A stretch of 33,731 nt of DNA from Chloroflexi bacterium ADurb.Bin180 (GCA_002070215.1 MWCV01000026.1:1-33731); one strand, 5' to 3'; shown: positions 2,669 to 29,988, counted from the first letter of the stretch. Program-made: numbers and translations. Notes: generated by a model from the sequence alone, not told the origin.

Positions 2669-2889
2669 TGTTATTGTTCGCCTGACGAGAGCTTCCGCGA
2701 CCACTGGAGGTGACTGGCGAGCGGTCTGCTCCTGGCGTCGGGCCTTGGGCGAGTTTGGGCGCCAATCACCCACACTGCGTTCCAGTTGCGACGGCTCCGT
2801 CACGGCCCGTTCATCTTCCTCGAGATGCGTTTGGTCATGTATCGCTCGACTTGGCGTGCGCAAATACTGTGAGGCGAAGGAGCAGACAG

Positions 2890-3726
2890 ATGCCGTACTC
2901 AGCAGAGATTAGCCGCCGCAATCCGAGTTGCATCCTCTTCCTTCTCGACCAATCCGGGTCTATGGCCGACCGATTCCCCAACCGCCAGGGCTGCAAGGCG
3001 GACGATGTCGCCACGACAACAAACCGTATCCTGTCGAATGTGATCGTGCGCTGCACCAAGGGCGATGATATCCGCGACTACTTCCATATTGGTGTTATCG
3101 GCTATGGCGGCAAGGTGGGGTCAGTACTTGGCGGTCTGCTTGCGGGACGTGACATAGTGCCGGCAAGCGAGCTTGGGCGTCACCCGCTCCGTGTGGAAGA
3201 ACGTAAGCAGAAGGTGGAAGACGGCATCGGCGGGCTTGTGGAGCAGAACGTGCGATTTCCCGTGTGGATCGACCCGATCACAGAGAATGGCACTCCGATG
3301 TGCGCCGCGCTCACAGTTGCGACGCACATACTCGCTGCGTGGCTGAAGGATCATGCTGACTGTTTCCCACCGACGGTCATCCACGTGACGGATGGCGAAG
3401 CCACGGACGGTGACCCCAGAGAGGCCTTTGCAGCACTCACGAGCTTGGGCTCAAGTGACGGGCCCGTGATGCTGTTCAACGTGCACCTTTCCAGCAACCC
3501 GAGCGCAAACAAGCTCGAATGGCCAGACGCGAAGACCGCGTTGCCGGATCAGTACGCCCAGATGCTCTTTGACACCGCCAGTGCGCTGCTGCCTACTCAT
3601 CGCATTCTAGCTGCTGAGCAGGGCAAGTCAGTGAATGAGGGCAGCAAGGCGTTCGTTCTGAATGCTGATCTCGTCTCCGTGATCGAGGCGTTTGAGATAG
3701 GTACTCGCCCAGCCAATTTCAGATAG
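2890..3726 (+). CDS. vWA-domain protein, TerY-like (triad component 1)
   Basis: This 278-residue protein is essentially one von Willebrand A domain. The metal-ion-dependent adhesion site is intact: D20-Q-S22-G-S24, T135 in ENGTPM and D168 in VTDG. There is no signal peptide or membrane segment, so it should be cytosolic. The start ATG at 2890 follows AAGGAG; a longer open frame exists to 2710 but its extra 60 residues look non-coding. Followed 13 nt later by a PP2C phosphatase and then a protein kinase, it matches the TerY-P triad known from comparative genomics of Ter-linked stress and DNA-processing systems. In such triads the vWA protein is thought to be a metal-dependent scaffold and a possible phosphorylation target. 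No TerD/TerC homologue is in the window. Confidence 0.9.
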   Translation: MPYSAEISRRNPSCILFLLDQSGSMADRFPNRQGCKADDVATTTNRILSNVIVRCTKGDDIRDYFHIGVIGYGGKVGSVLGGLLAGRDIVPASELGRHPLRVEERKQKVEDGIGGLVEQNVRFPVWIDPITENGTPMCAALTVATHILAAWLKDHADCFPPTVIHVTDGEATDGDPREAFAALTSLGSSDGPVMLFNVHLSSNPSANKLEWPDAKTALPDQYAQMLFDTASALLPTHRILAAEQGKSVNEGSKAFVLNADLVSVIEAFEIGTRPANFR

Positions 3727-3739
3727 GCGCTCCAAGGGC

Positions 3740-4510
3740 ATGTTCGCAACAGTAAGCAGATACGTCTGTGTGAAAGCAGGCAACCAGCCGGATGAGTGCG
3801 AGGACGCGTTCTGCATTCGTGGTGTTCGCAGGGGACCCACTCTGCGCTGTGCGGTCGCCGATGGGGCGACAGAATCATCCTTCTCCCGCGCCTGGGCGAC
3901 CCGGCTTGTTCATGCCTACGCTAGAAGACCGTTTGACGACCTTGCTGACCTCGTGAAGCGTGCTGGCCTACTCGGCAGGGGATGGCGACGGGTGTTCCTA
4001 CACCGTCCGCTGCCGTGGTATGCCGCCGAAAAAGTGCGCCTCGGAGCGTTCAGCACCCTGCTGGGAACCGAGTTGGCGCGTCCGTGCGGAGATGCCGCGA
4101 AAGGGACGTGGAGAGCTGTGGCGGTGGGCGACACTTGCCTTTTCCACTTGAGAGGCGCACAGCTCCTGGCGGTCTTCCCTCCTCTGACGGCAAGCGACTT
4201 TGGCCACTTTCCCACGCTGCTGTCGACGAGTGAGCACGCGAACGTGTCTGCTTGGGCGGCGGTGCTGTTTACGGAGGGTGAATGGCAGGTCGGAGACACT
4301 TTTGTGCTCGCTACTGATGCCCTGGCGGCGTGGTTTGCTCGCATCAGGGAGGGAGGCGCCGCAACGTGGGCTGAGTTTCCGCCGTTGGCCGAGCACCTGT
4401 GGCCGGCAGGCGGGTTCGAGGACTGGGTGTTTCAGAAGCGGGCATCGAAGGAATTGGCGAACGACGACACCACTTGCATAGTGGTGCAGACCCAGGAGAT
4501 GGACGATTGA
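3740..4510 (+). CDS. PP2C-family Ser/Thr phosphatase (triad component 2)
   Basis: A 256-residue PPM/PP2C phosphatase. The metal-binding motifs appear in order: E21-D22-A-F, V-A-D41-G42-A, V-G130-D131, A-T-D193-A and N241-D242-D243-T-T. All expected acidic ligands are present, so it should be an active Mn/Mg-dependent phosphatase. It is slightly compact and has no membrane or sensory domain. It presumably reverses phosphorylation by the kinase encoded next, perhaps on the vWA protein (inference from gene order). The ribosome site at 3740 is weak, fitting translation coupled to the vWA gene 13 nt upstream. Its TGA stop overlaps the TTG start of the kinase gene by 3 nt (TTGA). Confidence 0.88.
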   Translation: MFATVSRYVCVKAGNQPDECEDAFCIRGVRRGPTLRCAVADGATESSFSRAWATRLVHAYARRPFDDLADLVKRAGLLGRGWRRVFLHRPLPWYAAEKVRLGAFSTLLGTELARPCGDAAKGTWRAVAVGDTCLFHLRGAQLLAVFPPLTASDFGHFPTLLSTSEHANVSAWAAVLFTEGEWQVGDTFVLATDALAAWFARIREGGAATWAEFPPLAEHLWPAGGFEDWVFQKRASKELANDDTTCIVVQTQEMDD

Positions 4511-6216
4511 TCCTCCCTCGAGGTGATGACTACCAGAACGCGGTCCAGAACCCAGGGACCGCGTTCTTCGACAACGACCTCCGCAAGTGCAAGGTAGAAG
4601 AGGGCCCATTTCGCCTGCCCAAGCCCTACTCGGGCGGATTCACGGTCACTTACCACCTGCTGGACGGGCGTAGCGGCTGGGCTGTGCGTTGTTTCACCAG
4701 GCCGGTCTCCGGCCTTGAGGAGCGCTATCGCGCCATTGGCCGCTTTGCGCGACGAACTGGCCTCAGTGGTCTCGTCCCGGCTGACCTTCTCCAGCCCGGC
4801 ATTCAAGTGTGTGGCGACTGGTACCCAATCATCAAGATGTTGTGGGTGGATGGGAGCACTCTGGGTGACTACCTGGAGGTCAATATCAGCCGCCCTACGG
4901 CGATCGAAGCACTTGCCGAGAAGTTTCGGGAGACAGTGCGCCAGTTGGAGCAAAGCGGCATGGCTCATGGCGACTTGCAGCATGGGAACATCATCGTTGG
5001 GCGCTCCGGTATACAGCTCGTCGATTATGACGGGGTGTGGTTACCAGAGATCTCCTCTCTTGGTACTGATCAACTTGGTCATCCGAACTACCAGCATCCT
5101 GGGCGGCAGGATGCTACGGTGTACGGTCCGTGCATGGACCGTTTCTCCTCGATCATCATCTATGTTGGGCTGAGGGCTACGGCGGCGGAACCCTCGCTGT
5201 GGGACAAGTATGGCGACCCGGATAGAATCCTGTTCCATCAGGGAGACTTCCGGGACCCAGCTTCCTCTCCTCTGCTCGCTGCTATGGAGTGCAATTCCAG
5301 CCTCAAGGCGATGGCGGAGATGGTGCGCTCTGTTTGCCTACTTGGGGTGTCGAAGGTTCCTTCACTGGAGGACTTTGTCAGAGGGAACATCCCCAAGGAA
5401 GCCGAGGTTCTGCGACAATTCGCTTTGCCCAGAAGTGCATACGAATGCATCGATGCGACTGATATCATCCGTCTGTGGAGGTTCGCTGGGCAGCGAGTTC
5501 AGGTTATTGGGCGAATCGATGGTTACTACGAAGGGCGCACCGCATTCGGAAAACCGTACGCGTTCTTGAACTTTGGCAAGTTCCCACACCAGACGCTGAC
5601 GCTCGTCCTGTGGTCTCCCGTAGTTGATGCTCTTGGTGACCATGGACTTTGCCCCGGCAGCTTCGCGGGGAAATGGGTCTCAGTCTCTGGAATGATGAGC
5701 TCCTACCATGGCAAGGGCCAGATGGTGGTGGAAGGTGTCTCGCAGCTGCGTCTGCTGCAGGGCCAGAGCGAGGCCGAGCGTCTCCTTGGCGGACCCGTAC
5801 TCGGCACAACCGATCAGAAGCGTCTGGTGGAGCGACCGTTGCGGAGATCAGGAAGGTCAGCTAGGCTGGCAGCCAAGCTACAACCCACCGCAAGCCAAGG
5901 ATCCGTCACTCAGAACTACGCTCAGACTCTTGAGCGCCTATATGGTGGCTCGGCAAGGTCTAGGCAGGTGAACCGCCCGCAAGTAGCACCAAGCACAACA
6001 GCAACCAAAAAGATGGCTCGCGCGCCGCGAGCGTCGTCTCCGCCAGGTGTCAAGCCGCAACCTGACAGAATGCGCGGCGCGCTTGTGTCAGTGATATGCG
6101 CAGTGCTCGCCACTGTGTTGGCTGCTGGTCTGAGCCAATGGATTGAGCCCTTGTTCTTGGGGCTGGCCGTGTCGGCAGTGGCCATATCCGCATACAGCTT
6201 GGCAACTCGGTCCTAG
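4507..6216 (+). CDS. Protein kinase with OB-like domain and C-terminal membrane hairpin (triad component 3)
   Basis: A 569-residue protein. The N-terminal half is a bacterial eukaryote-like kinase of the TerY-P type, with catalytic loop H154-G-D156-L-Q-H-G-N161 and metal loop V-D173-Y-D175-G. A usual VAIK lysine is not obvious; the nearest candidate is in YPIIKMLWVDG. Residues about 322-418 look like an OB-fold (VQVIGRIDGYYEGRTAFGKP through VSVSGMMSSYHG), followed by a basic disordered stretch and two hydrophobic segments at about 522-565 that should anchor it in the membrane. The start is TTG at 4507, 8 nt after AGGAG and overlapping the phosphatase stop; an in-frame ATG at 4399 lies deep inside the phosphatase gene and lacks this site. 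The kinase call is firm, the OB call moderate. Confidence 0.88.
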   Translation: MILPRGDDYQNAVQNPGTAFFDNDLRKCKVEEGPFRLPKPYSGGFTVTYHLLDGRSGWAVRCFTRPVSGLEERYRAIGRFARRTGLSGLVPADLLQPGIQVCGDWYPIIKMLWVDGSTLGDYLEVNISRPTAIEALAEKFRETVRQLEQSGMAHGDLQHGNIIVGRSGIQLVDYDGVWLPEISSLGTDQLGHPNYQHPGRQDATVYGPCMDRFSSIIIYVGLRATAAEPSLWDKYGDPDRILFHQGDFRDPASSPLLAAMECNSSLKAMAEMVRSVCLLGVSKVPSLEDFVRGNIPKEAEVLRQFALPRSAYECIDATDIIRLWRFAGQRVQVIGRIDGYYEGRTAFGKPYAFLNFGKFPHQTLTLVLWSPVVDALGDHGLCPGSFAGKWVSVSGMMSSYHGKGQMVVEGVSQLRLLQGQSEAERLLGGPVLGTTDQKRLVERPLRRSGRSARLAAKLQPTASQGSVTQNYAQTLERLYGGSARSRQVNRPQVAPSTTATKKMARAPRASSPPGVKPQPDRMRGALVSVICAVLATVLAAGLSQWIEPLFLGLAVSAVAISAYSLATRS

Positions 6217-6729
6217 GTGCAGCCACTCGGTAGATCATCGCCGTGGAGGCTACTCTGGTATGGTAGTGGTGCCGCCGCGTGGCGCTGTCCTGGCTCATGA
6301 CCTAGGCAACCGCTCTGCGACGGGGTAGCAGCTCGGCCTGCACGCGGAGCGCGGTCGCAAGGGTCGAAGCTGCGCCTGAGCCAATGCCTACGGCTCTGCC
6401 GGCCACTGGGAACAGGTCGTTGACCTGCTCCGCCTCGACTGCGCAGTGAGCGTGAAAATGATGAAGAACGTCGGCGAGGAGCCCATAGCGACTCTACTGG
6501 AATGCCGACGTAGGAGAAGTACTGGCCAAGTCCAAAGCGCTGTGGTCTACCGCGTCAAGCGGCCTTCGCAGGGCCGCATCCGACTGCCTCGAGGGGCAGT
6601 GGTTGGCAGAAGGCCGACACGCGATTTGCATCCGGATGCGAAGGGACCTATAATGTCCACTCAGGTCGGGAGACAGATAACGGCTGACGCAGACAGACTA
6701 GTGCCTGAAACCGAAAGGAGCGTATGGTG
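6217..6729. other. Intergenic stretch with a possible decayed coding fragment
   Basis: About 510 nt separate the two island operons. From 6380 the plus strand reads ANAYGSAGHWEQVVDLLR and continues open to 6730, with an amphipathic, protein-like beginning directly after a TGA. No good start or ribosome site precedes it and the later part looks random (Arg-rich). It could be the tail of a lost gene. The promoter for the next operon is at 6626-6654. Nothing else was recognised. Confidence 0.35.
6626..6654 (+). promoter_or_regulatory. Sigma70-type promoter of the metallopeptidase/Dcd operon
   Basis: TTGCAT (6626-6631) and a perfect TATAAT (6649-6654) are spaced by 17 nt. Transcription should start near 6661, about 70 nt before the first gene. 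This shows the downstream genes can be expressed independently of the kinase operon. Confidence 0.8.
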
Positions 6730-7185
6730 ATGCAACACGTTGACGACTTCCATCTTGGGGTTGTGTTCAACAGCGTAAGGCACACGCTTCAGAACGAGGT
6801 GACCTCACTCTCGCCCAACTCGCTCTCCTATGTTCGCGACGCCCAGAAGTTTGTGGACAAGCTCGTCAGCTCCCTTGACTCGCTTTGCCCACCTACTCGT
6901 CGCCGTGGCTCCTGCGGCTCGTTTGTGTTCTTACCTAACCTGGAGGACGTCATCAGGATTCGTCACTTAGGTTCTGATAGGTTGGATGCTAAGATCTTGG
7001 ACAGCGTCAAAGCGTATTTCCGCACAATGCGCAATTATCTTGCGGAGCTTGAGGCTGATCCTCAGGCCCTCTACGGGAGCGAGCGAGCTTCTGAACTTCT
7101 GGATTTCGTCGCAAGACTTGCGGACATCTATTCTCCAAGCTATCGTGTGCTGTCTGACGATTACTCGGTGTACGTGACAGCCTAG
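6730..7185 (+). CDS. Small protein of unknown function (island operon 2)
   Basis: A 151-residue protein (MQHVDDFHLG...) rich in predicted helix, with no signal peptide, membrane segment or catalytic motif recognised. Two ATGs are available. The one at 6730 is 9 nt after AGGAG and is preferred; the one at 6724 is only 3 nt from it. It is the first gene after the promoter at 6626-6654 and lies 56 nt before the HExGH protein gene. Its position suggests a partner or regulator of the next two proteins. No family was recognised; the coding call rests on the promoter, ribosome site and operon spacing. Confidence 0.7.
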   Translation: MQHVDDFHLGVVFNSVRHTLQNEVTSLSPNSLSYVRDAQKFVDKLVSSLDSLCPPTRRRGSCGSFVFLPNLEDVIRIRHLGSDRLDAKILDSVKAYFRTMRNYLAELEADPQALYGSERASELLDFVARLADIYSPSYRVLSDDYSVYVTA

Positions 7186-7241
7186 CCAGGGCGACTGCAA
7201 CCTAGCTCACTTGGTCTGTTGAACGGCGGGGTGCCGGATAA

Positions 7242-8573
7242 ATGCTGAACAACGAGCTTTACCGCAAGCTAGTAGGGGCGAAGACCTACCTTGACGAGAG
7301 GATTCAGCGGGCCGATTTTTGCAGTCAGTCTTGTGTGGTTGCCATTGCGAACTATCGTAGGTTCGTTCAGTATCTGATCGACCACTTCTCGGAGATAGAA
7401 CCCTCAATTCACCAGAGTCTCTTCGTGCAGCTCTCCACTGTGTTCATACCGAGCATCAGGTATATCGAGAGGGCATCGACTGCCAACATTCCGTGGAGCA
7501 TCCTTCCTTACCTCGATCAGATGCTGCGGGAACTGTTCGGAGACAACCACCTTGTGCTATTCAGGCCTCAGTGGAACTTCAACTACACCGTGATGATGGC
7601 TGACCTGGTAGACCCGCTCCGCGAGGATCTCATTGCGGCGCTTCCGAGTCGGAGGGACGAGATTGAGCAAAGCTTCCGCGGGCAGCGGGTTCACGTATTC
7701 TCCTTTCCGTACCTGGAGAAGACCAACGTGCTGCTCCACTCTGTCATCGGCCACGAAATTGGGCACTTCTACTACCGCATCTGGGAGGAATCCAGCGAAG
7801 CCAGGAAACTGCGCCATGAGCAGAATGCCTCCTTGAGCACCCACTACAGGCGCCAGTACCCGCGCGACATGATGAAGGCGTATAATCAGACGGAAGAGGG
7901 CATGAAGGTCTTGGAGGGGATGTACCGGGAGATCTTCTCGGACATCTGCGGTTACCAGTTGTTTGGTCCATCTATGCTATTCGCTCTCGAAGACATCGCG
8001 GTGTTCGAAGCCAGTTGCGCGAGGCCGAGTAGCCAAACTCACTACTATCCCCCGACCAAGTACCGCATTCGGCTGCTCTATGAGAAGGTACTGCCTCTCG
8101 GCTCCCATCGGCGGTTGCTCTTGGGAGGCAATACCGAGTGTTCAAAGTACTTCGCAGCGTTTCTCGAGTCCATAGCCAGTGATTTGGCTGATCGCGAGGA
8201 CCTGAAAGCATTGGCTGACTTGCACAAGGAGACGCAGCTCTTCCAGGAGGCCCTGCCAGCCGTCATCGACTTTGTGAGGGCCCACGTGCCGACCAAATAC
8301 GTACACGTAGAAATCGTGCCACGACTCTTCGACAAGCTGAACGAGAGCATTCCCATCAACGAGCTGGATGGCGAGCCGGTTGGAATGAGTGACATCATCC
8401 TTGCGGGCTGGATCTTCCACCGCAAGATTACAGCTTGCTATCAGAAGGACGATTACATCACTCAGTACCAGATTCTGTCGCGCCTGCTCCTCAAGTCACT
8501 GTACTCCAGCTACATTCACGCAGACTACATTCAATGGAGGAGATCCGCCGATGGGTACCCTCTCAAAGCGTGA
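7242..8573 (+). CDS. HExGH zinc-metallopeptidase-like protein of unknown family
   Basis: A 443-residue soluble protein. The notable motif is H171-E172-I-G-H175 within a hydrophobic stretch (LLHSVIGHEIGHFYYR), the classic HExxH zinc site. A second helix carries E230-I-F-S-D234, which could supply the third ligand. The family cannot be named; the flanking regions are helical with no signal peptide or transmembrane segment, suggesting a cytosolic enzyme. The start ATG at 7242 has only a weak ribosome site. Its last 23 nt overlap the dCTP deaminase gene, whose GGAGGAG site lies inside this frame, so the two are tightly coupled. The substrate is unknown; a protease cutting a partner protein is an inference from the motif and context only. 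Confidence 0.82.
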   Translation: MLNNELYRKLVGAKTYLDERIQRADFCSQSCVVAIANYRRFVQYLIDHFSEIEPSIHQSLFVQLSTVFIPSIRYIERASTANIPWSILPYLDQMLRELFGDNHLVLFRPQWNFNYTVMMADLVDPLREDLIAALPSRRDEIEQSFRGQRVHVFSFPYLEKTNVLLHSVIGHEIGHFYYRIWEESSEARKLRHEQNASLSTHYRRQYPRDMMKAYNQTEEGMKVLEGMYREIFSDICGYQLFGPSMLFALEDIAVFEASCARPSSQTHYYPPTKYRIRLLYEKVLPLGSHRRLLLGGNTECSKYFAAFLESIASDLADREDLKALADLHKETQLFQEALPAVIDFVRAHVPTKYVHVEIVPRLFDKLNESIPINELDGEPVGMSDIILAGWIFHRKITACYQKDDYITQYQILSRLLLKSLYSSYIHADYIQWRRSADGYPLKA

Positions 8574-9174
8574 GCTAATCGATAGGCTTGGCGGGTCTGG
8601 TTCGGACAAGCTCGTGGTCACGCCGATTCTGGACGCCGAACTACAGGTGAACGAGATCGGCATTGATCTGAGGCTGTCAAGTCAGTTCATCATCTTCAGA
8701 ATCGAGAACATCAACGCAATAGACCCAGCACAGCTCCGTTCAGACAGTGAGCGTGTGAAGTGTATCCAGACTGAAGTGGTGGTACCGTTTGGAACGCCGT
8801 TCTATCTACATCCTCAAGAGATGGTGCTGGGTGCTACCTTTGAGTATGTAGCAATGCCCGACACCATCGAAGCATCAGTTGAGGGCAGGTCGTCGCTCGC
8901 CAGGGTCGGCCTTGTAATCGCCACCGCCGTCACTATCGAACCGGGCTTCAAGGGCTGTATCACCCTCGAGCTCGCGAACATCGCCAGCGTACCAATCGCC
9001 CTCTATCCGGGCACTAGGATTGCTCAGCTTGTATGCAGAGAGACTACTTCCAGTGCCCAGCACACGAGAGGCTGGAAGTACCTTGTCCCCGTGGGTCCCG
9101 AGTTTAGTCGGCTGCACAGTGACAAGGACGGGCCGTTTGCGTACCGGACTCAACCCTGGGCCAGTAACATTTGA
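8551..9174 (+). CDS. dcd: dCTP deaminase family protein
   Basis: This 207-residue protein carries the Dcd/dUTPase fold signatures: GIDLRLS (residues 37-43), the core E-G-R113-S114-S115-L-A-R118-x-G, and PGFKGCITLE140LAN, where E140 matches the catalytic glutamate of E. coli Dcd. It should convert dCTP to dUTP, or to dUMP if bifunctional. The ATG at 8551 follows GGAGGAG by 8 nt and lies inside the end of the preceding metallopeptidase-like gene. Compared with E. coli Dcd the C-terminal tail differs (HTRGWKYLVP... QPWASNI). Family members also act as antiphage enzymes that deplete dCTP, and the linkage to a peptidase-like gene and a kinase/phosphatase/vWA set favours a defence or stress role over housekeeping. 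That role is inferred; the enzyme family is clear. Confidence 0.9.
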   Translation: MGTLSKRELIDRLGGSGSDKLVVTPILDAELQVNEIGIDLRLSSQFIIFRIENINAIDPAQLRSDSERVKCIQTEVVVPFGTPFYLHPQEMVLGATFEYVAMPDTIEASVEGRSSLARVGLVIATAVTIEPGFKGCITLELANIASVPIALYPGTRIAQLVCRETTSSAQHTRGWKYLVPVGPEFSRLHSDKDGPFAYRTQPWASNI

Positions 9175-22397: not shown

Positions 22398-25109
22398 ATG
22401 CTGCTCCACGAGTCCCCTTACATCGCTTCTCTGGTAATCACCGCGGCGCTGGCGCTGGCGGCGGCACTGTACTTCTCCCGCCGCGCGCCGCGCGGCGTCG
22501 TCCCCTTCGTAGCCCTGATGGCAGGGGTGGCCTGCTGGGCTTCTTTCTATGCCCTGGAGCTGTCCACCCCTGACCTGGCCACCAAGCTCTTCTGGTTCGG
22601 GCTCAAGTACGTGGGCATCGTGACTTTGCCGCCGGCCTATGTCCAGTACGCGCTGCGCTACACGGACCAGGAGGGCCTGCTCCGCGGCCGTGCCAAGGTG
22701 CTGCTGGCGGTAGAGCCGCTCTTTTTCCTGCTGGCCCTGTGGACCAATGGCGCGCATCACTGGGTGTGGACCGGGGCTAGAGTCGTATTGGCCGACGGGG
22801 CCAACGGGGTTCTGGTACTGGATCATGGCTGGGCCTTTTGGTTGAATATGGTCTATTCCAACGGCCTGAGCCTGGTTGGGCAGCTCGTGCTGGCCGGCAG
22901 CCTGATCCACGCCTCACCGTTGCACCGCCGGCAAACTGCGGTATTGATGCTGGCCTGCTCTCTGCCGCTGCTGACGAGCGTGGCTTCCGTGGTGCAGGCT
23001 GCTCCCCTGGGCCTGCCGAGCCTCGTGCCGCCGGCCGCGCTCCTGGCCGGATTGGTGATGGGTTACGGCCTGCTGCGCTTTGATCTGCCGGATGTGCTGC
23101 CGGTGGCGCGCGAGGTCACGCTGGAGCACGTGGCTGAGGGCGTGGTGGTGGTGAGCCGCGGGGGCCGGGTGGTGGATGCCAACGCGGCTGCCCTGGCGCT
23201 GGCCGGCTTGACCCGCGGCCAGGCCGTGGGTCGGCCGGCAGCCGAGGTGCTGAGCTTTGTACCGGCCGCGCTGGAGCGAGCTGGCGGCCTCGATGCGTGG
23301 CAGGGGCTGGAGGAGTGGACCCAGGCGGGGCAGGTGCGGCAGTTGGACCTGTTTGTGTCGCTCTTGCGCGGCAGGCGTGGTCAGGAGTCGGGCCATGTCG
23401 CGGTGATCCGCGACATTACGGAGCGACTTGCCGTCGAGAACGAGCTGCTGGCCCGCTCCAACGAGCTGGCCGAGCTGTATGATACCAGTCTGGCCATTGC
23501 CTCCGAGCTGGACCTGCAAAAGCTGCTGCCGGTCATCGTCGAACGGGCCAACCGGCTGCTGACGGCTATGGGAACGGGGCTCTACCTCTATGATGCCGAG
23601 AAAGACAACCTATTCTATGAGGTAGGCACGGGCCTATCCGAGCAGTTCGTTGGCAGCAGCCTGGGGCGGGGCGAGGGGCTCAGCGGACGGGTGCTGGAAA
23701 CGGAGCTGCCGCTGGCGGTGGAGGACTATCACCACTGGCCTGGCCGCTCGTTGCAGTTCGAGGCTCAGGCCGTGGGCAGTGTGCTGGGGGTGCCGGTGCG
23801 CTGGCAGGGCCGCGTTCTGGGCGTGATCGAGGTGCAGCGCGAGGCGGGCCGGCCCTTTACCAGCGAAGAGCGGCGCCTGATGGACCTGTTCGCCATCCAG
23901 GCCGCCAGCGCTCTGGGCAATGCCCGGCTCTACCAGGCCGCCCAGCGCGAGCTGCAGGAGCGGCGGCTGGCCGAGTCGGCCCTGCGCGCCTCCGAAGCGC
24001 GCTACCGGGCCACGGTGCAGGACCAGACCGAGCAGATCTACCGGATGAAGCCCGACCTGACCATCACCTTTGCCAACGACGCGGCCTGCCGCTTTCAGGG
24101 CGTACTGCCGCAGCAGGTGGTCGGGCGCAGCGTTCTGGAAGATGTCCTGCCCGAGGACCAGGCGGGGGTGCGGCAGATCCTGGGCATGATCAGCCCCGAG
24201 CAGCCGGTGCTCGTATCGGAGAACCGCAACGTGGGCGCGGACCAACAGCAGCACTGGTTCCAGTGGACCAATCGCGGCATCTTTGACGAGTCGGGCCGGC
24301 TGGTCGAGCTGCTCTCGGTGGGCCGCAACATCGATGAGCGCAAGAGCGCCGAAGCGGACCGGGAGCGCCTGGAGGAGCAACTGCGCCTGGCGCAGCGCAC
24401 TGAGGCGGTGGGCATCCTGGCCGGCGGTGTGGCTCACGAGTTCAACAACCTGCTCACGGTCATCCGGGGCAACGTGGAGCTGCTGCAGGCCGACCTGGCG
24501 GAGCAGCCGGCGATGCAGGCTCCGCTGGAGGCCATTGCGCGCACCGCGCAGCGGGCCACCGCGCTGACCCGGCAACTGCTGGCCCTCAGCCGCCGGCAGG
24601 TGCTGCAGCGTGTGCCCACCGACCTCAACGACCTGGTGACGAGCTTTGCACCATTGCTGCGTCATGCGGTGGGCCAGCTCATTCAGGTGCACGTTCAGAC
24701 TGAGCCAAACCTGGGCCGGGTGCTGGCCGATCCGGGTGCGATGGAACAGGTGCTGATGAACCTGGCCATCAACGCGCGCGATGCCATGCCCGAAGGAGGG
24801 CTGCTGGTGGTGTCCACGCGGCCGGTGGATGCCGACCCGGCCTTTTGCGCCGCCCACCCCGCCGTGGCGCCGGGCCATTATGCCTGCCTGACCGTGTCGG
24901 ATACGGGGAGCGGGATGGACGATGCCACCCGGCGTCACCTGTTCGAGCCCTTTTACACGACCAAAGAGGTGGGCAAGGGCACCGGTCTGGGGCTCTCGGT
25001 GGTGTACGGCATTGTGCGGCAGCACGAGGGGTTCATCGAAGTGCACAGCGAGCCGGGCAAGGGCACGGTGATTGACATCTATCTGCCGCTGGGAGGGCAG
25101 CAGCAATGA
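22398..25109 (+). CDS. Hybrid-sensing histidine kinase (7TM-PAS-GAF-PAS-HisKA-HATPase)
   Basis: A 903-residue membrane sensor kinase. Residues about 1-220 carry seven hydrophobic segments like the histidine-kinase 7TM sensor region. They are followed by a PAS domain (about 235-350), a GAF domain (365-520), a second PAS (535-650), a HisKA dimerisation domain with H680 in GVAHEFNNLL, and a catalytic ATPase domain with NLAINARDAMP, the D-x-G box VSDTGSGMD and GKGTGLGLSVV. All catalytic boxes are intact. No receiver domain is fused, so its partner should be a separate regulator. The ATG follows AAAGGA by about 6 nt. The gene overlaps the next kinase as ATGA. The signal is unknown; GAF and PAS suggest a small ligand or redox input. 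Confidence 0.93.
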   Translation: MLLHESPYIASLVITAALALAAALYFSRRAPRGVVPFVALMAGVACWASFYALELSTPDLATKLFWFGLKYVGIVTLPPAYVQYALRYTDQEGLLRGRAKVLLAVEPLFFLLALWTNGAHHWVWTGARVVLADGANGVLVLDHGWAFWLNMVYSNGLSLVGQLVLAGSLIHASPLHRRQTAVLMLACSLPLLTSVASVVQAAPLGLPSLVPPAALLAGLVMGYGLLRFDLPDVLPVAREVTLEHVAEGVVVVSRGGRVVDANAAALALAGLTRGQAVGRPAAEVLSFVPAALERAGGLDAWQGLEEWTQAGQVRQLDLFVSLLRGRRGQESGHVAVIRDITERLAVENELLARSNELAELYDTSLAIASELDLQKLLPVIVERANRLLTAMGTGLYLYDAEKDNLFYEVGTGLSEQFVGSSLGRGEGLSGRVLETELPLAVEDYHHWPGRSLQFEAQAVGSVLGVPVRWQGRVLGVIEVQREAGRPFTSEERRLMDLFAIQAASALGNARLYQAAQRELQERRLAESALRASEARYRATVQDQTEQIYRMKPDLTITFANDAACRFQGVLPQQVVGRSVLEDVLPEDQAGVRQILGMISPEQPVLVSENRNVGADQQQHWFQWTNRGIFDESGRLVELLSVGRNIDERKSAEADRERLEEQLRLAQRTEAVGILAGGVAHEFNNLLTVIRGNVELLQADLAEQPAMQAPLEAIARTAQRATALTRQLLALSRRQVLQRVPTDLNDLVTSFAPLLRHAVGQLIQVHVQTEPNLGRVLADPGAMEQVLMNLAINARDAMPEGGLLVVSTRPVDADPAFCAAHPAVAPGHYACLTVSDTGSGMDDATRRHLFEPFYTTKEVGKGTGLGLSVVYGIVRQHEGFIEVHSEPGKGTVIDIYLPLGGQQQ

Positions 25110-27673
25110 CCCTGTGGGAGAAGACGCTGCGCGTCATTGGTGTAAGCGTGCTGCTGCTGGTGTCGGTGCTGTATCTGCTGCAGCGGGCCGTGCTGCGGCG
25201 CGATTTCAGCCGGCTCGAGCGCGAGAACCTGGAGGAACGCCTGCAGACAGCGCGCTATGTGGTGGACCTGGAGCTGGAGCACCTGCAACTGCTTTCTGGC
25301 GACTGGGCCCTCTGGGACGATATGTACGCATTCGCCGCCGACGGCAATGCCGAGTTCCTGGCCGCGAACCTGCCCGACCGGTCACTCGAGGTCGCCGGCC
25401 TCAACCTGATGGTGATTGTCGATGCGGCGGGGCGGGTGCTCTATGCCCGCGGTTTCGATCCGCTGCACGGCGGGATGTTCGACCTGCCAGAAGTGGATGT
25501 GGCCGGCTCTGGCCCGCTGGCGCCGCTGCTGGGGCCGGCGGACGAGGGCGGCCGCAGCGGTCTGGTGATGCTACAATCCGGCGCCATGCTGGCCGCCAGC
25601 CGCTCGATCCTGACCAGCCTGGGCCAGGGGCCGGCGCGGGGGACGGTCGTCGTGGGGCGCCTGCTCGAGGAGCGGGCGCGCGAGGGGCTGAGCGAAATTG
25701 CCCGGCTGCCCTTGAGGCTGCGCAACGCCAGCGACGAGAGCCTGACCGCCGATGAGAGGGCCAGGCTGGCAGCACTGGCGCCGGGACAGTCCACGTGGAT
25801 TGAATCGCGCTCGGGCAGCATCTATGCCGGGCATCTGTTGCTGCGCGATATGGCCGGCCAGCCGGCGGTGGTGGTGACGCTGGAGCCATCGACCGATGCG
25901 TACAACTATGGCCAGGTGACTTTTTATGCGCTGGGCACCATGCTGGTTGTGGGCGCGCTGGGCCTGTTCTTGGCGGTCCTGCTGGGCATTGAGGTGACGG
26001 TGCTCTCGCGCATCAATGCGCTGCGCCGGCAGGTGGCGGTGGTGAGCAGCTCGGCCGACCCGACGTTGCGGGTCAAGCTGGACGGCCGCGATGAGGTGGC
26101 CGACCTGGCTCAGAGCATCAACGTCTTGCTGGCCGGGTTGGAGGAGGCGCACCGCTCGTTCGCCGCCCAGCAGCAGGAGCTGCGCGAGTCGGAGCGGCGC
26201 TACCGCACCATCTTTGAGACAGCCGGCACGGCCAACGTCATTCTCGACGAGGATGGAACCGTGCTGCTGGTGAATCCCGAGTTTGAGCGCCTCTATGGCT
26301 ACAGCAGGGAAGAGTTGGAAGGCAAACGCAAATGGTCCGAGTTCGTCCAACCGTCGGACGTGCAGCGGATGAGGGAATACCAGCTGCGGCGGCTGCGGGA
26401 GCCCTCTGCGGCGCCGCGGTCCTACGAGTACAAGGGCTATGACCGGCAGGGCAACTTGAGAGATGTCCTGCTGACAGCAGCGGTCATTCCCGGCACGCGG
26501 CGCACTCTGGCCAACCTGCTGGACATTACCGAACGCAAGCGCATCGAGGAGGAGCTGCGGCGGCTCAAGGATTTCAACGAAGGCATTGTCGAAGGGATGG
26601 CCGAAGGTTTGGTGCTGGAGGACAGCGAAGGTAGAATTACGTTTGTCAACCGCGCCCTGGAAACGATGCTGGGCTATCAGCGGGCCGAGCTCATCGGCTG
26701 GAGCTGGACGCAACTGGTGGCTCCGGACCACATCGAGTCGATCCGCGCCAGGATGGCCGGCCGCAGGGAGGGCGCGAGCGAGGTCTACGAGTCGTACTTC
26801 CTGGACAAGGCCGGCCGGCAGGTGCCGGTGCTGATCAGCGCGCGGGCGCTGATGGAGGGGGGGCGCTACCACGGTTCGCTGTCGGCCATCACCGATATGC
26901 GCGAGCGGGAGCAGCTCGAGGAGCAGCTCAGGCAGGCGCAAAAGCTCGAGATGCTGGGCGTAATTGCCGGCGGCGTGGCGCACAGCTTTAACAACCTGCT
27001 CACGGTGATTCGCGGCAACGCGCAGCTCGTTCTGGCCGAAGAGGGACTGACCGAGCAGCTCCGCCACGACCTGGAGGTGATCGACGGGGCGGCTCAGCGG
27101 GGGGCGCTGCTCACGCAGCAGTTGCTGACCTTTAGCCGGCGGCGTGTGCTGCAGCCGGTGGCGACGGACCTCAACCGGCTCGTGCGCGATTTCGTGCAGC
27201 TCATCGGGCCGGTGCTGGGCGGCGACATCACCGTGCAGACCGGGCTGGCCACAGCAGCGCTGCCGGTGCTGGCCGATGCCAGTGCGGTGGAGCAGGTGCT
27301 GATGAACCTCTCGGTCAATGCGCGCGACGCGATGCCCGACGGCGGCACCTTGACCTTTGAGACGGCCGCCGTGAGCCTGCCCGCAGGGGCAGCAGAGTGC
27401 CGGCCGGCAGTGCCGCCGGGGGACTATGTGCGGGTGAGTGTCACCGATACGGGCCAGGGAATGGGTCCGGACGTGATCGCCCACCTGTTTGAGCCGTTCT
27501 ACAGCACCAAAGAGGTAGGCCGGGGCACGGGGCTGGGCCTGTCCGTGGCCTATGGCATTGTGCAGCAGCACCAGGGCTGCATCGAGGTGCAGAGTGCGCC
27601 GGGGCAGGGCGCCCGGTTCGACATCTACTTTCCCGCACGCGCTGCCGACCAGCCGCGCAAGCAGGAAGGGTAA
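25106..27673 (+). CDS. CHASE4 sensor histidine kinase (CHASE4-HAMP-PAS-PAS-HisKA-HATPase)
   Basis: An 855-residue sensor kinase. TM1 (about 8-28) is followed by an extracellular CHASE4-like domain (DWALWDDMYAFA and IVDAAGRVLYARGFDP), then TM2 (about 271-295), HAMP (about 295-348), PAS (365-480), PAS (490-610), HisKA with H626 in GVAHSFNNLL, and the ATPase domain with NLSVNARDAMP, VTDTGQGMG and GRGTGLGLSVA. It is catalytically complete. The kinase core is strikingly similar to that of the preceding gene, suggesting duplication with exchange of the sensor half. The start overlaps the upstream stop (ATGA). Eighty nt separate it from the receiver/pseudo-kinase gene. Confidence 0.93.
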   Translation: MTLWEKTLRVIGVSVLLLVSVLYLLQRAVLRRDFSRLERENLEERLQTARYVVDLELEHLQLLSGDWALWDDMYAFAADGNAEFLAANLPDRSLEVAGLNLMVIVDAAGRVLYARGFDPLHGGMFDLPEVDVAGSGPLAPLLGPADEGGRSGLVMLQSGAMLAASRSILTSLGQGPARGTVVVGRLLEERAREGLSEIARLPLRLRNASDESLTADERARLAALAPGQSTWIESRSGSIYAGHLLLRDMAGQPAVVVTLEPSTDAYNYGQVTFYALGTMLVVGALGLFLAVLLGIEVTVLSRINALRRQVAVVSSSADPTLRVKLDGRDEVADLAQSINVLLAGLEEAHRSFAAQQQELRESERRYRTIFETAGTANVILDEDGTVLLVNPEFERLYGYSREELEGKRKWSEFVQPSDVQRMREYQLRRLREPSAAPRSYEYKGYDRQGNLRDVLLTAAVIPGTRRTLANLLDITERKRIEEELRRLKDFNEGIVEGMAEGLVLEDSEGRITFVNRALETMLGYQRAELIGWSWTQLVAPDHIESIRARMAGRREGASEVYESYFLDKAGRQVPVLISARALMEGGRYHGSLSAITDMREREQLEEQLRQAQKLEMLGVIAGGVAHSFNNLLTVIRGNAQLVLAEEGLTEQLRHDLEVIDGAAQRGALLTQQLLTFSRRRVLQPVATDLNRLVRDFVQLIGPVLGGDITVQTGLATAALPVLADASAVEQVLMNLSVNARDAMPDGGTLTFETAAVSLPAGAAECRPAVPPGDYVRVSVTDTGQGMGPDVIAHLFEPFYSTKEVGRGTGLGLSVAYGIVQQHQGCIEVQSAPGQGARFDIYFPARAADQPRKQEG

Positions 27674-27753
27674 GGGACCGCCGCGCGCCCCTCGCGGGCG
27701 GTAACGGGCCAGGGGCTGAAACGCGTCCTGAGCCAAGTCGCGGAGGAGATGAA

Positions 27754-29988
27754 ATGGATCCCACCAGGCGAATTCTCATCGTGGACCACGAGCCCAAGTC
27801 GACCCTGGATATGGAGCGGGCCCTGACCTCGGCCGGGCACGAGGTGACCCTGACCGAGTCGGGCAAGGACGGCCTGCGCCTCGCGCGCGAGACCGTGCCC
27901 CACCTGATCCTGGTCGACGTAGCGCTGACCGACATCAGCGGCATTGACCTGGTCAAGCTGGTGCGCCACGAAGAGTCGCTCGAGCGCAGCTATGTGGTGC
28001 TGCTGGTGCGCGAAGAGGTGCCGGCGGCCATTCAGGCGCGCGCTCTGGAGAGCGGCGCCGACGCGGTGGTCCAGAGAACCTTCCTCACCCGCGATTTTGT
28101 CTCGCGCATCGAGGCCCTGCTGCGCCGGCAGAGGACGCAGGACGACCTGTGGTATGCCGTGCGCGACCTGCGCAAGACCTTTGACGCCATCTCCGACGCG
28201 GTGTACCTGGTAGACCTCGACCACCGCATTATCGAGTGCAACCAGGCGCTGGTGGAGATGCTGGGTGTGCCGCGCGGCGAGATCATTGGCGCCAGATGCT
28301 ACGAGCTGATGCACCGCAGCAGCAAACCCATCCTGGCCTGCCTCGGCGAAAGGGTCACCTACACCCACCGCCGCGAGACCTGGGAGGCACCGGGGCTGGA
28401 CGGCCGGTGGCAGCAGGTGGACGTGGACCCCCTGGTCGATGACAACAACAAGGTCGTTGGCAGCGTGCACGTGCTGCGCGATATCACCGACCGGCGGCGC
28501 ATTGACGAGGCTCTGCGCGCCGCGCAGGAAGACCTCAAGAAGCGCAACGAAGTCGAAGACGGCTTGAAGCGCCGCCAGAGCGAGCTCGAGCAGCAACTGG
28601 CGATGGGCCGCACGGCGCTGGCCCAGGCTCATCAGCACAGCGAGGACGTGCTGGCGGCGGCGCAGGAGCAGGTGCGACTGGCGCAGAACGAAGTGGCCGA
28701 GCAGCGCCGCCAGAAGATGGCCGGGCTGCGGCGCTTTGCCGCCGGAGTGGCCAAAGAGTTCGAAAAGCGCCTGGCCGAGGTGCTGGGCGGCATCGAGATC
28801 ACCCTGGGGCGGCTGCAGCCGACGCAGACATTCTACAACGAGCTGCTGGCGGTCAAGCAGGGGCTGGAAGGCGCGCTGTACCTGGTGCGGCAGTTGCGGG
28901 CTTTTGCCGCGGTCGAGCTGCTCGAGCCGCAGATCTTTTACGTGAATGAGGCCCTGCGGGCGATGGAACCGCGCCTGCAGCGGCTGCTGGGCAAGCGCAT
29001 CGGGCCAGAACTCGAGCTGGCGCCCGGCCTGAGGCCGGTGCTGGCCGACCCGCTGGGCTTTGAGGAGATTGTGCTGAACCTGGCCACCCACGTGCGCGCC
29101 AGCACGCCGGCCGTCGGTACGCTGCGGCTGATCACCTCTGCGGCCACGCTGAGCGAGGCCGACTGCGCCGCCCATCCCGACGCCAGGGCGGGCGAGTACG
29201 TGCTCTTGAGCGTGTCCCAGGTGAGCGACGAGCCGGCCCTGCCGGCCCTGGCCTACCTCTTTGAACCCCTGCCGGCCACGACGGGCAATCAGGGCAATAT
29301 GGCCCTCACCGCGGCGGAGGGTATGGTGCACCAGCTCGGCGGATTCCTGCTGGTGGCCCAGGGCGGCACGCGCTGGGACGTGTACCTGCCGGCGCAGATG
29401 GATCAGCCGCCCGAAACGGCGCCGGAGCCGGCCGCTGCCCCCGCACCGGTCGAGGCGACCCCCGAGGCAGGCGAGCCCAACTGGCCGGCCGCGATGGCTG
29501 AGGCGGCCGCCGCATCGCCACGAAATGAGCCCGCCGCCGAGGTGCCACGAAGCGATAGTACTGCCGAACCGTCGCCGGCCGCTGCGCCTGCGCCGGAGGC
29601 GGAGCCAGCCGCAGACGCCGCGGCGAGCAAAGCCACGGTGAGGGAAGCGGGACCGGCAGTTGGTTCGGCGGAGATGATCGGCGCTGCGCCAGGCGGCGAG
29701 CCAGCGCCGGCGCAGACGGTCGAACCAGAGCCGCTGCCGGAGACGGCCGGGGTGGCTGCAGCAGAGCCAGCCCCTGAGGTCCCTGCGCCCACCACCGAGT
29801 CCGCGGCCACGGCGAGCGCTGAGAACGAACACGAGCTGCCGGCGTTCCTCTCGGAGGAAGATGTGCCGTCTCCGCTGGAGACAGAGCCGCCGGGCGGCAT
29901 TGGTGCCCGGCTGAGGGCCAGGCTGCGCCGCAAGGCGGCCCCGCAGCAGGACGCGGCTGCTGAAGAACCTGCAGCGCCCAGGAACTAG
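27754..29988 (+). CDS. Receiver-PAS-pseudo-histidine-kinase fusion with Ala/Pro-rich tail
   Basis: A 744-residue cytosolic protein. The N-terminal receiver keeps phospho-acceptor D55 (LILVDVALTD) but has Arg in place of the usual Lys (VVQRTF) and no Thr/Ser in VVLLVREE. A PAS domain follows (about 140-250), then a long coiled coil (about 255-325). Next is a region shaped like the neighbouring kinase core but without catalytic residues: the H-box reads GVAK334EF where its neighbours have GVAH, the N-box reads NLATHVRAS, and the D-x-G box is absent (VSQVSDEP). The last ~195 residues are low-complexity Ala/Pro/Glu. It may be a phospho-responsive scaffold or an inhibitor of the two upstream kinases. 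GGAGGAG precedes the ATG. Confidence 0.85.
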   Translation: MDPTRRILIVDHEPKSTLDMERALTSAGHEVTLTESGKDGLRLARETVPHLILVDVALTDISGIDLVKLVRHEESLERSYVVLLVREEVPAAIQARALESGADAVVQRTFLTRDFVSRIEALLRRQRTQDDLWYAVRDLRKTFDAISDAVYLVDLDHRIIECNQALVEMLGVPRGEIIGARCYELMHRSSKPILACLGERVTYTHRRETWEAPGLDGRWQQVDVDPLVDDNNKVVGSVHVLRDITDRRRIDEALRAAQEDLKKRNEVEDGLKRRQSELEQQLAMGRTALAQAHQHSEDVLAAAQEQVRLAQNEVAEQRRQKMAGLRRFAAGVAKEFEKRLAEVLGGIEITLGRLQPTQTFYNELLAVKQGLEGALYLVRQLRAFAAVELLEPQIFYVNEALRAMEPRLQRLLGKRIGPELELAPGLRPVLADPLGFEEIVLNLATHVRASTPAVGTLRLITSAATLSEADCAAHPDARAGEYVLLSVSQVSDEPALPALAYLFEPLPATTGNQGNMALTAAEGMVHQLGGFLLVAQGGTRWDVYLPAQMDQPPETAPEPAAAPAPVEATPEAGEPNWPAAMAEAAAASPRNEPAAEVPRSDSTAEPSPAAAPAPEAEPAADAAASKATVREAGPAVGSAEMIGAAPGGEPAPAQTVEPEPLPETAGVAAAEPAPEVPAPTTESAATASAENEHELPAFLSEEDVPSPLETEPPGGIGARLRARLRRKAAPQQDAAAEEPAAPRN

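What the first reader, a model, noticed from the sequence alone, without database searches (positions are those of the whole stretch)
6626..9174. Candidate undescribed module: unknown protein + HExGH metallopeptidase-like protein + dCTP deaminase
Three genes share a strong promoter (TTGCAT-17-TATAAT) and tight coupling: the deaminase start and its ribosome site lie inside the metallopeptidase-like gene. Dcd-type enzymes serve as antiphage nucleotide-depletion effectors, and a peptidase-like partner would suit a trigger or activator, but I know of no described system with this exact combination. It sits directly beside the vWA/PP2C/kinase triad on the same strand.
Basis: partly seen in the sequence, partly recalled or inferred. 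Interest (0 to 1): 0.75.

Follow-up and report, generated by a model that had tools for sequence, protein, structure and literature searches.

The report
Peptidase–dCTP deaminase three-gene module
Three tightly packed genes (a small helical protein, a zinc-peptidase-like protein and a dCTP deaminase) are a distant copy of a mobile gene trio that recurs in many bacteria, often beside antivirus genes, and that I could not find described anywhere, so it may be an unrecognised way for bacteria to shut down viral DNA synthesis.

Summary
Three same-strand ORFs (6724-7185, 7242-8573, 8551-9174) lie in a low-GC, patchily distributed island beside a TerY-P defence triad. The middle protein carries HExGH...ExxxD and matches no Pfam, NCBIfam, PADLOC or PDB sequence family. 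The last is a dUTPase-fold dCTP deaminase with intact catalytic residues.

A scan of ~85,000 species genomes with related HExGH proteins found 54 loci (Pseudomonadota, Bacteroidota, one Thermodesulfobacteriota). All 54 have a dcd gene directly downstream, overlapping or within 5 nt, and nearly all have a ~100-aa helical gene upstream. In contrast, 0 of 20 ordinary dcd genes from the same genomes have an HExGH neighbour.

The window copy is a divergent relative: its peptidase is homologous (E=4e-7), but its Dcd falls outside the main clade and its first gene is related only by position.

Neighbours elsewhere are enriched in ubiquitin-like conjugation, RM and CapP-like genes. The Dcd is not the known antiphage dCTP deaminase family. 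Best reading: an undescribed accessory, probably antiphage, module in which a gluzincin-type peptidase gates a nucleotide-depleting deaminase. The module is shown; defence and gating are inferred.

The parts
6626..6654 (+). Candidate sigma-70-type promoter TTGCAT-17-TATAAT
   Evidence: Sequence; no more than chance expectation in the scan
6724..7185 (+). Gene 1: small, probably helical protein, 153 aa (start 6724 or 6730), no known family; same position as the ~100-aa first gene of type-A modules
   Evidence: positional counterpart in relatives, no sequence homology found
7242..8573 (+). Gene 2: gluzincin-like metallopeptidase, 443 aa, HEIGH 171-175 and E230xxxD234
   Evidence: homologous to the type-A HExGH family; model pLDDT 76; weak zinc-peptidase fold matches
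8536..8542 (+). Ribosome-binding site GGAGGAG of dcd, inside gene 2
8551..9174 (+). Gene 3: dUTPase-fold dCTP deaminase (Dcd), 207 aa, S114, R118, E140 conserved
   Evidence: TIGR02274 3e-40, PF22769 5.7e-33, PDB matches
2710..6216 (+). Neighbouring TerY-P triad (TerY, PP2C, STK_OB); same island, not part of the module
   Evidence: PADLOC; not found next to other module copies

Best explanation
The locus is a divergent copy of a mobile, accessory three-gene module: small helical protein, then a gluzincin-type zinc metallopeptidase, then a dUTPase-fold dCTP deaminase. I think it is most likely an anti-phage (anti-mobile-element) system that acts by nucleotide depletion. The Dcd is the effector: once active it drains dCTP to dUTP and blocks or poisons phage DNA synthesis. 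The small protein and the peptidase are the control layer: the peptidase, activated by an infection cue, releases the Dcd by cleaving or dislodging the small protein (or a propeptide or partner). Shown: conserved gene order and coupling, intact catalytic motifs in both enzymes, gluzincin-like fold of the type-A peptidase (and, more weakly, of the window protein), accessory patchy distribution, presence on plasmids and phage-plasmids, defence-type neighbours. Inferred: defence function, which enzyme is the effector, the peptidase substrate, the trigger.
For: Module: 54 of 54 genome loci found with the HExGH protein alone have dcd directly downstream on the same strand, and a ~100-aa first gene was recovered in 51 of 56. 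0 of 20 ordinary dcd genes from the same genomes have an HExGH neighbour. Window gene 2 is hit by a type-A HMM built without it at E=4e-7, over residues 53-278, not only the motif. The same three-gene order occurs in L018 (same phylum), L005 and L027. Catalysis: HExGH...ExxxD in 51 of 51 type-A and 5 of 5 divergent proteins; the Dcd S/R/E signature in 62 of 63. Fold: type-A model pLDDT 94.4, whose best natural-enzyme matches are zinc peptidases (ZMPSTE24 6bh8 Z 6.4 over 138 aa, BepA, Ste24, ZMP1, aminopeptidase N, DPP III). Accessory: 0 of 59 relatives of the window genome have gene 2; 1 of 5 same-family genomes has any Dcd, only 25% identical; GC 0.545-0.58 against 0.65-0.70. 22 of 33 module hosts carry a second full-length Dcd, and 8 E. 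coli genomes carry the module on plasmids only, so it is not the biosynthetic enzyme there. Defence context: Ubl conjugation genes near 20 of 63 module loci against 0 of 20 controls (p=0.002, or p=0.03 with the rhizobial clade collapsed), plus RM, CapP-like, mad2 against generic single hits in controls. Precedent: a dCTP/dCMP deaminase blocks phage (AvcID, PMC10511110).
Against: No infection or biochemical data. In 11 of 33 hosts (mostly Bacteroidota) the module Dcd is the only full-length Dcd, so a metabolic role is not excluded there, and it is also the only Dcd in the window genome. The window Dcd does not group with type-A module Dcds; it groups weakly (88/61) with ordinary ones. Its first gene has no detectable homology to theirs. 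No substrate for the peptidase is known. Many Bacteroidota loci have ordinary chromosomal neighbours.
Confidence: 0.45

Rival explanations
1. Roles reversed: the Dcd is a nucleotide sensor and the peptidase is the effector. A phage-induced shift in dCTP/dTTP/dUTP changes the Dcd conformation and unleashes the peptidase, which cleaves an essential host or phage protein (abortive infection).
For: dUTPase-fold proteins are known to act as signalling molecules (phage dUTPase binding the SaPI Stl repressor, abstract of PMC5593958). HExGH relatives occur without dcd beside other genes (a large ATP-binding protein in L009, a patatin-like protein in L019), so the peptidase is the more widely used part. 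The loop that holds E. coli H121 is shortened in module Dcds.
Against: Dcd catalytic residues are kept in 62 of 63 modules, more than a pure sensor needs. Within the type-A family the Dcd partner is invariant.
Confidence: 0.2
2. Not defence: a regulated nucleotide-metabolism cassette that supplies dUTP/dTTP to its host or mobile element, with the peptidase controlling Dcd turnover.
For: In 11 of 33 hosts and in the window genome it is the only full-length Dcd. It sits on plasmids and phage-plasmids that might profit from extra dTTP.
Against: 22 of 33 hosts already have a Dcd; patchy distribution; defence-type neighbours against none around ordinary dcd. A peptidase is not needed for supply.
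Confidence: 0.2
3. The window operon is an independent assembly: a member of the wider HExGH superfamily and an unrelated Dcd came together separately, so it need not work like the type-A module.
For: The window Dcd is outside the type-A clade and nearer to ordinary Dcds; the first genes are not detectably homologous; HExGH relatives without dcd exist.
Against: Same gene order, overlap and small first gene in four mutually divergent window-type copies. The type-A HMM scores three of the four dcd-linked divergent proteins (window, L018, L027) above the dcd-free P0014, the exception being L005. Long branches make the Dcd tree unreliable here.
Confidence: 0.25
4. The peptidase serves ubiquitin-like conjugation (processing or removing a Ubl) and the Dcd is one of several targets or partners.
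For: Ubl E1/JAB/multiubiquitin genes lie near 20 of 63 module loci, of several unrelated types.
Against: About two thirds of modules, and the window, have no Ubl genes nearby; the cassettes carry their own JAB peptidases; orientation and spacing vary.
Confidence: 0.1

Closest known systems
Antiphage dCTP deaminases (DcdV / AvcD; PADLOC dCTPase PDLC02373)
   Same: Enzymatic logic: dCTP deamination to deplete a DNA precursor
   Different: Different protein family and architecture: the 541-aa relative on L097 matches the PADLOC model at 1.9e-158, while no module Dcd matches; AvcD is controlled by an RNA, here there is a peptidase and a small protein
Housekeeping dCTP deaminase Dcd (TIGR02274; PDB 1xs1 E. 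coli, 2qxx M. tuberculosis)
   Same: Same fold family and catalytic S/R/E residues
   Different: Encoded in an operon with a peptidase; loop at E. coli H121 shortened; an extra copy in most hosts
Gluzincin zinc metallopeptidases, nearest M48 (ZMPSTE24, Ste24, BepA)
   Same: HExxH plus ExxxD motif and a similar predicted core
   Different: No Pfam M48 match for the window protein; extra N- and C-terminal helical parts
CapP/CapH and similar peptidase-controlled defence regulators
   Same: Metallopeptidase beside a defence effector; CapP-like genes are also neighbours in several module loci
   Different: CapP is an IrrE-type peptidase; the window protein has no PADLOC match and the type-A proteins only sub-threshold ones
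TerY-P phosphorylation triad (Gao et al. 2020, as described in PMC7699616)
   Same: Physical neighbour in the window; defence against T7-like phages reported
   Different: Separate genes and system; not next to the module in other loci

Membership tests
Type-A small-HELGH-Dcd module (defined here from 54 loci) | Gene order small gene, HExGH gene, dcd, same strand, dcd overlapping or abutting the HExGH gene | tested here: met
Type-A small-HELGH-Dcd module (defined here from 54 loci) | HExGH protein homologous to the type-A family | tested here: met
   HMM without the window protein, E=4e-7 (Z=10000), residues 53-278; hhalign probability 94%
Type-A small-HELGH-Dcd module (defined here from 54 loci) | Dcd belongs to the type-A Dcd clade | tested here: not met
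   Type A is one clade (100/99) without the window Dcd; so filed as a divergent relative, not as type A
Type-A small-HELGH-Dcd module (defined here from 54 loci) | First gene homologous to the ~100-aa helical family | tested here: inconclusive
   E 0.66; only position corresponds
dCTP deaminase (TIGR02274, dUTPase-fold Dcd) | Above curated cut-off, catalytic residues present | tested here: met
   137.8 bits against 92.8; S114, R118, E140
dCTP deaminase (TIGR02274, dUTPase-fold Dcd) | Deaminates dCTP | not testable with these tools
   Needs an enzyme assay; the base-binding loop is one residue shorter than in E. coli
Antiphage dCTP deaminase (PADLOC dCTPase / DcdV) | Match to the PADLOC model | tested here: not met
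   No match at E<=1 for P0001; positive control 1.9e-158
M48-type gluzincin peptidase | HExxH and ExxxD zinc site | tested here: met
   HEIGH 171-175, EIFSD 230-234, invariant in the relatives
M48-type gluzincin peptidase | Sequence or clear structural match to M48 | tested here: inconclusive
   No Pfam match for P0002; relatives 0.01-0.04; ZMPSTE24/Ste24/BepA Z about 5.6-6.7 among other rows
Antiphage defence system | Protection against phage infection | not testable with these tools
   Only genomic context available
TerY-P triad (neighbour) | TerY, PP2C and STK_OB genes in a row | tested here: met
   PADLOC matches

The most novel reading that the evidence does not exclude
A widespread, undescribed bacterial immune module in which a gluzincin-type metallopeptidase, with a small helical partner, gates a dUTPase-fold dCTP deaminase. 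It would be the first peptidase-gated nucleotide-depletion system known to me and the first immune use of the housekeeping-type Dcd fold, often combined with ubiquitin-like conjugation cassettes.
Probability: 0.4. Interest if true: 0.8.

Novelty: new variant of a known kind. Interest (0 to 1): 0.63.

Why it matters
If it is immunity, it adds a second, unrelated deaminase family and a proteolytic switch to nucleotide-depletion defence, and gives a function to an unnamed metallopeptidase family present in several phyla and on E. coli phage-plasmids. The strict dcd linkage makes it directly testable in laboratory strains. Even if it is not defence, a strictly conserved peptidase-Dcd operon would show an unknown way of controlling dCTP/dUTP pools.

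Tried and rejected
Close relatives of P0002: none in plasmids, phages, viral contigs, 300 genomes of the phylum or 59 relatives. What worked was walking from Dcd hits on plasmids to their upstream genes. Sequence search of P0002 against PDB: nothing. Foldseek against PDB with both models: no match under E 0.001; only the slower re-alignment brought up zinc peptidases, at middling Z. The Dcd alignment A2 could not be used for a collection scan. The idea that the Dcd is the organism's ordinary enzyme is weakened: most family relatives have no Dcd and the class has a different type. The idea that TerY-P and the module form one system is rejected on non-recurrence. The promoter as evidence was dropped. 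Literature: none of ten searches gave a paper that describes a Dcd-peptidase pair in defence (DefensePredictor main text checked); preprints, supplements and most subscription journals were not searchable. IMG/VR locus L040 lacks dcd because the HExGH gene is cut after about residue 260 and phage-type packaging genes follow.

Full report
What is there. The window holds three same-strand ORFs: 6724-7185 (153 aa), 7242-8573 (443 aa) and 8551-9174 (207 aa). The promoter-like TTGCAT-17-TATAAT is present, but one such site is expected by chance in the region. The third protein is a dCTP deaminase of the dUTPase-fold family (PF22769 5.7e-33, TIGR02274 3e-40) with the catalytic serine, arginine and glutamate in place when aligned to solved E. 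coli and M. tuberculosis enzymes. The first two match nothing in Pfam, NCBIfam or PADLOC. The three genes sit next to a TerY / PP2C / STK_OB triad in an island of lower GC (0.545-0.61 against 0.65-0.70).

Is it accessory? P0002 is absent from 59 relatives, including a genome of the same genus, and from 300 genomes of the phylum. Only one of five same-family genomes has any Dcd. Dcds of the class are about 24-33% identical to the window's and have no HExGH neighbour within the 1.5 kb held on each side. So the window Dcd is a patchy, probably acquired gene, although it is the only Dcd found in its own assembly (95% complete).

Relatives. P0002 itself finds no close homologue in plasmids, phages or viral contigs. 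Walking from Dcd homologues on plasmids to their upstream genes gave the answer. E. coli P1-like phage-plasmids (so identified from ref, icd and ash genes, my inference), Bradyrhizobium, Agrobacterium, Shinella, Rhizobium and Emticicia plasmids carry small gene, HExGH gene, dcd in the same order, mostly with overlap. It returned 54 loci in Pseudomonadota, Bacteroidota and one Thermodesulfobacteriota. All 54 have a Dcd ORF immediately downstream on the same strand; the search used only the peptidase. The seeds had been chosen through dcd, so the figure says that this peptidase family is tied to dcd, not that every HExGH protein is. A small (~95-110 aa) first gene was recovered in 51 of 56 loci; at least two of the misses are at contig ends. 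As a control, 20 ordinary dcd genes from the same host genomes have no HExGH neighbour.

Where the window copy belongs. An HMM of type-A proteins, built without any window-type sequence, hits P0002 at E=4e-7 and the same-phylum copy in L018 at 2e-7, across the N-terminal part and both zinc motifs. The window peptidase is therefore homologous, at 15-21% identity. The Dcd tree puts all type-A Dcds in one clade (100/99) and leaves the window Dcd and three other divergent copies (L005, L018, L027) outside on long branches. The window first gene has no detectable similarity to the type-A first gene. I therefore treat the window as a divergent relative of the module, and keep open that window-type modules assembled separately.

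Anatomy. HExGH...ExxxD is invariant in 51 of 51 type-A and 5 of 5 divergent proteins, and the Dcd signature is kept in 62 of 63 modules. The window peptidase model is moderate (pLDDT 76, pTM 0.77); a type-A model is excellent (pLDDT 94, pTM 0.92). Foldseek finds nothing significant. The re-alignment of its candidates brings up zinc peptidases of the gluzincin kind: ZMPSTE24 6bh8 Z 6.4 over 138 residues at 4.1 A, BepA, Ste24, ZMP1, aminopeptidase N, DPP III (window model). Z values of this size can also arise by chance in helical proteins, so 'gluzincin-like' rests on motif plus fold together. Type-A Dcds are three residues, and the window Dcd one residue, shorter than E. coli Dcd in the loop that holds E. 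coli H121. From memory, that loop takes part in base binding and dTTP inhibition, so altered regulation is plausible but untested.

Function. In 22 of 33 module hosts examined a second full-length Dcd is present (counted from the per-genome table), so the module Dcd is not needed for dTTP synthesis there. In the E. coli collection it occurs in 8 of 5,426 genomes, always on plasmids. Neighbouring genes match PADLOC models for ubiquitin-like conjugation (E1-E2), type I methyltransferases, mad2, CapP and RmrA, whereas neighbours of ordinary dcd genes give only single, generic hits. Ubiquitin-like E1/JAB/multiubiquitin genes lie near 20 of 63 module loci, of several unrelated types and in both orientations, against 0 of 20 controls (p=0.002; p=0.03 with the rhizobial clade reduced to one). 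One rhizobial plasmid also has a DcdV-type antiphage dCTP deaminase a few kb away. Together with the precedent that a dCTP/dCMP deaminase blocks phages (AvcID, PMC10511110), the best reading is a nucleotide-depletion defence module with the peptidase and the small protein as its switch. Defence is inferred from context, and the division of roles from gene content; the reverse (Dcd as sensor, peptidase as effector) remains a serious rival.

What was already known. No paper found in the library describes a Dcd-peptidase module, though preprints, supplements and most subscription journals were not searchable. TerY-P is a described system (PMC7699616) and is simply the neighbour here: it is not seen beside any other copy of the module.

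Noticed in passing
window 2710-6216: Complete TerY-P triad (TerY, PP2C, STK_OB by PADLOC), a described antiphage system, directly upstream of the module.
   Followed up: partly
L043, L044, L046-L050, L006, L025, L026; L018, L052, L062, L090; L066, L075, L091: At least three different ubiquitin-like conjugation cassettes (multiubiquitin-ThiF-DUF6527; JAB-ThiF; another multiubiquitin-E1 type) recur near the small-HExGH-Dcd module in unrelated taxa and orientations.
   Followed up: partly
L009:3674-5062; L019:8366-9775; L020:1198-4057: Other HExGH-superfamily proteins pair with other partners: a large ATP-binding protein (L009), a patatin-like protein (L019), and in L020 two tandem copies, one with a degenerate zinc motif (HEFAY). 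Suggests a larger undescribed peptidase family with exchangeable partners.
   Followed up: no
type-A Dcds, e.g. L003:6001-6618, L043, L063: Three-residue deletion in the base-binding loop while the catalytic Glu is kept; substrate or feedback may differ from ordinary Dcd.
   Followed up: partly
L040:698-2176: Viral contig in which the HExGH gene is cut at about residue 260 and followed by phage packaging-type genes: a broken module at a prophage boundary.
   Followed up: partly
L026 / L097 (Rhizobium sp. CIAT894 plasmid): A DcdV-type antiphage dCTP deaminase and the Dcd-peptidase module lie within about 7 kb of each other, with an ImmA/IrrE peptidase and a regulator between.
   Followed up: yes
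window 22398-29988: Three consecutive large PAS/GAF sensor proteins (two histidine kinases and a response-regulator-PAS protein).
   Followed up: no
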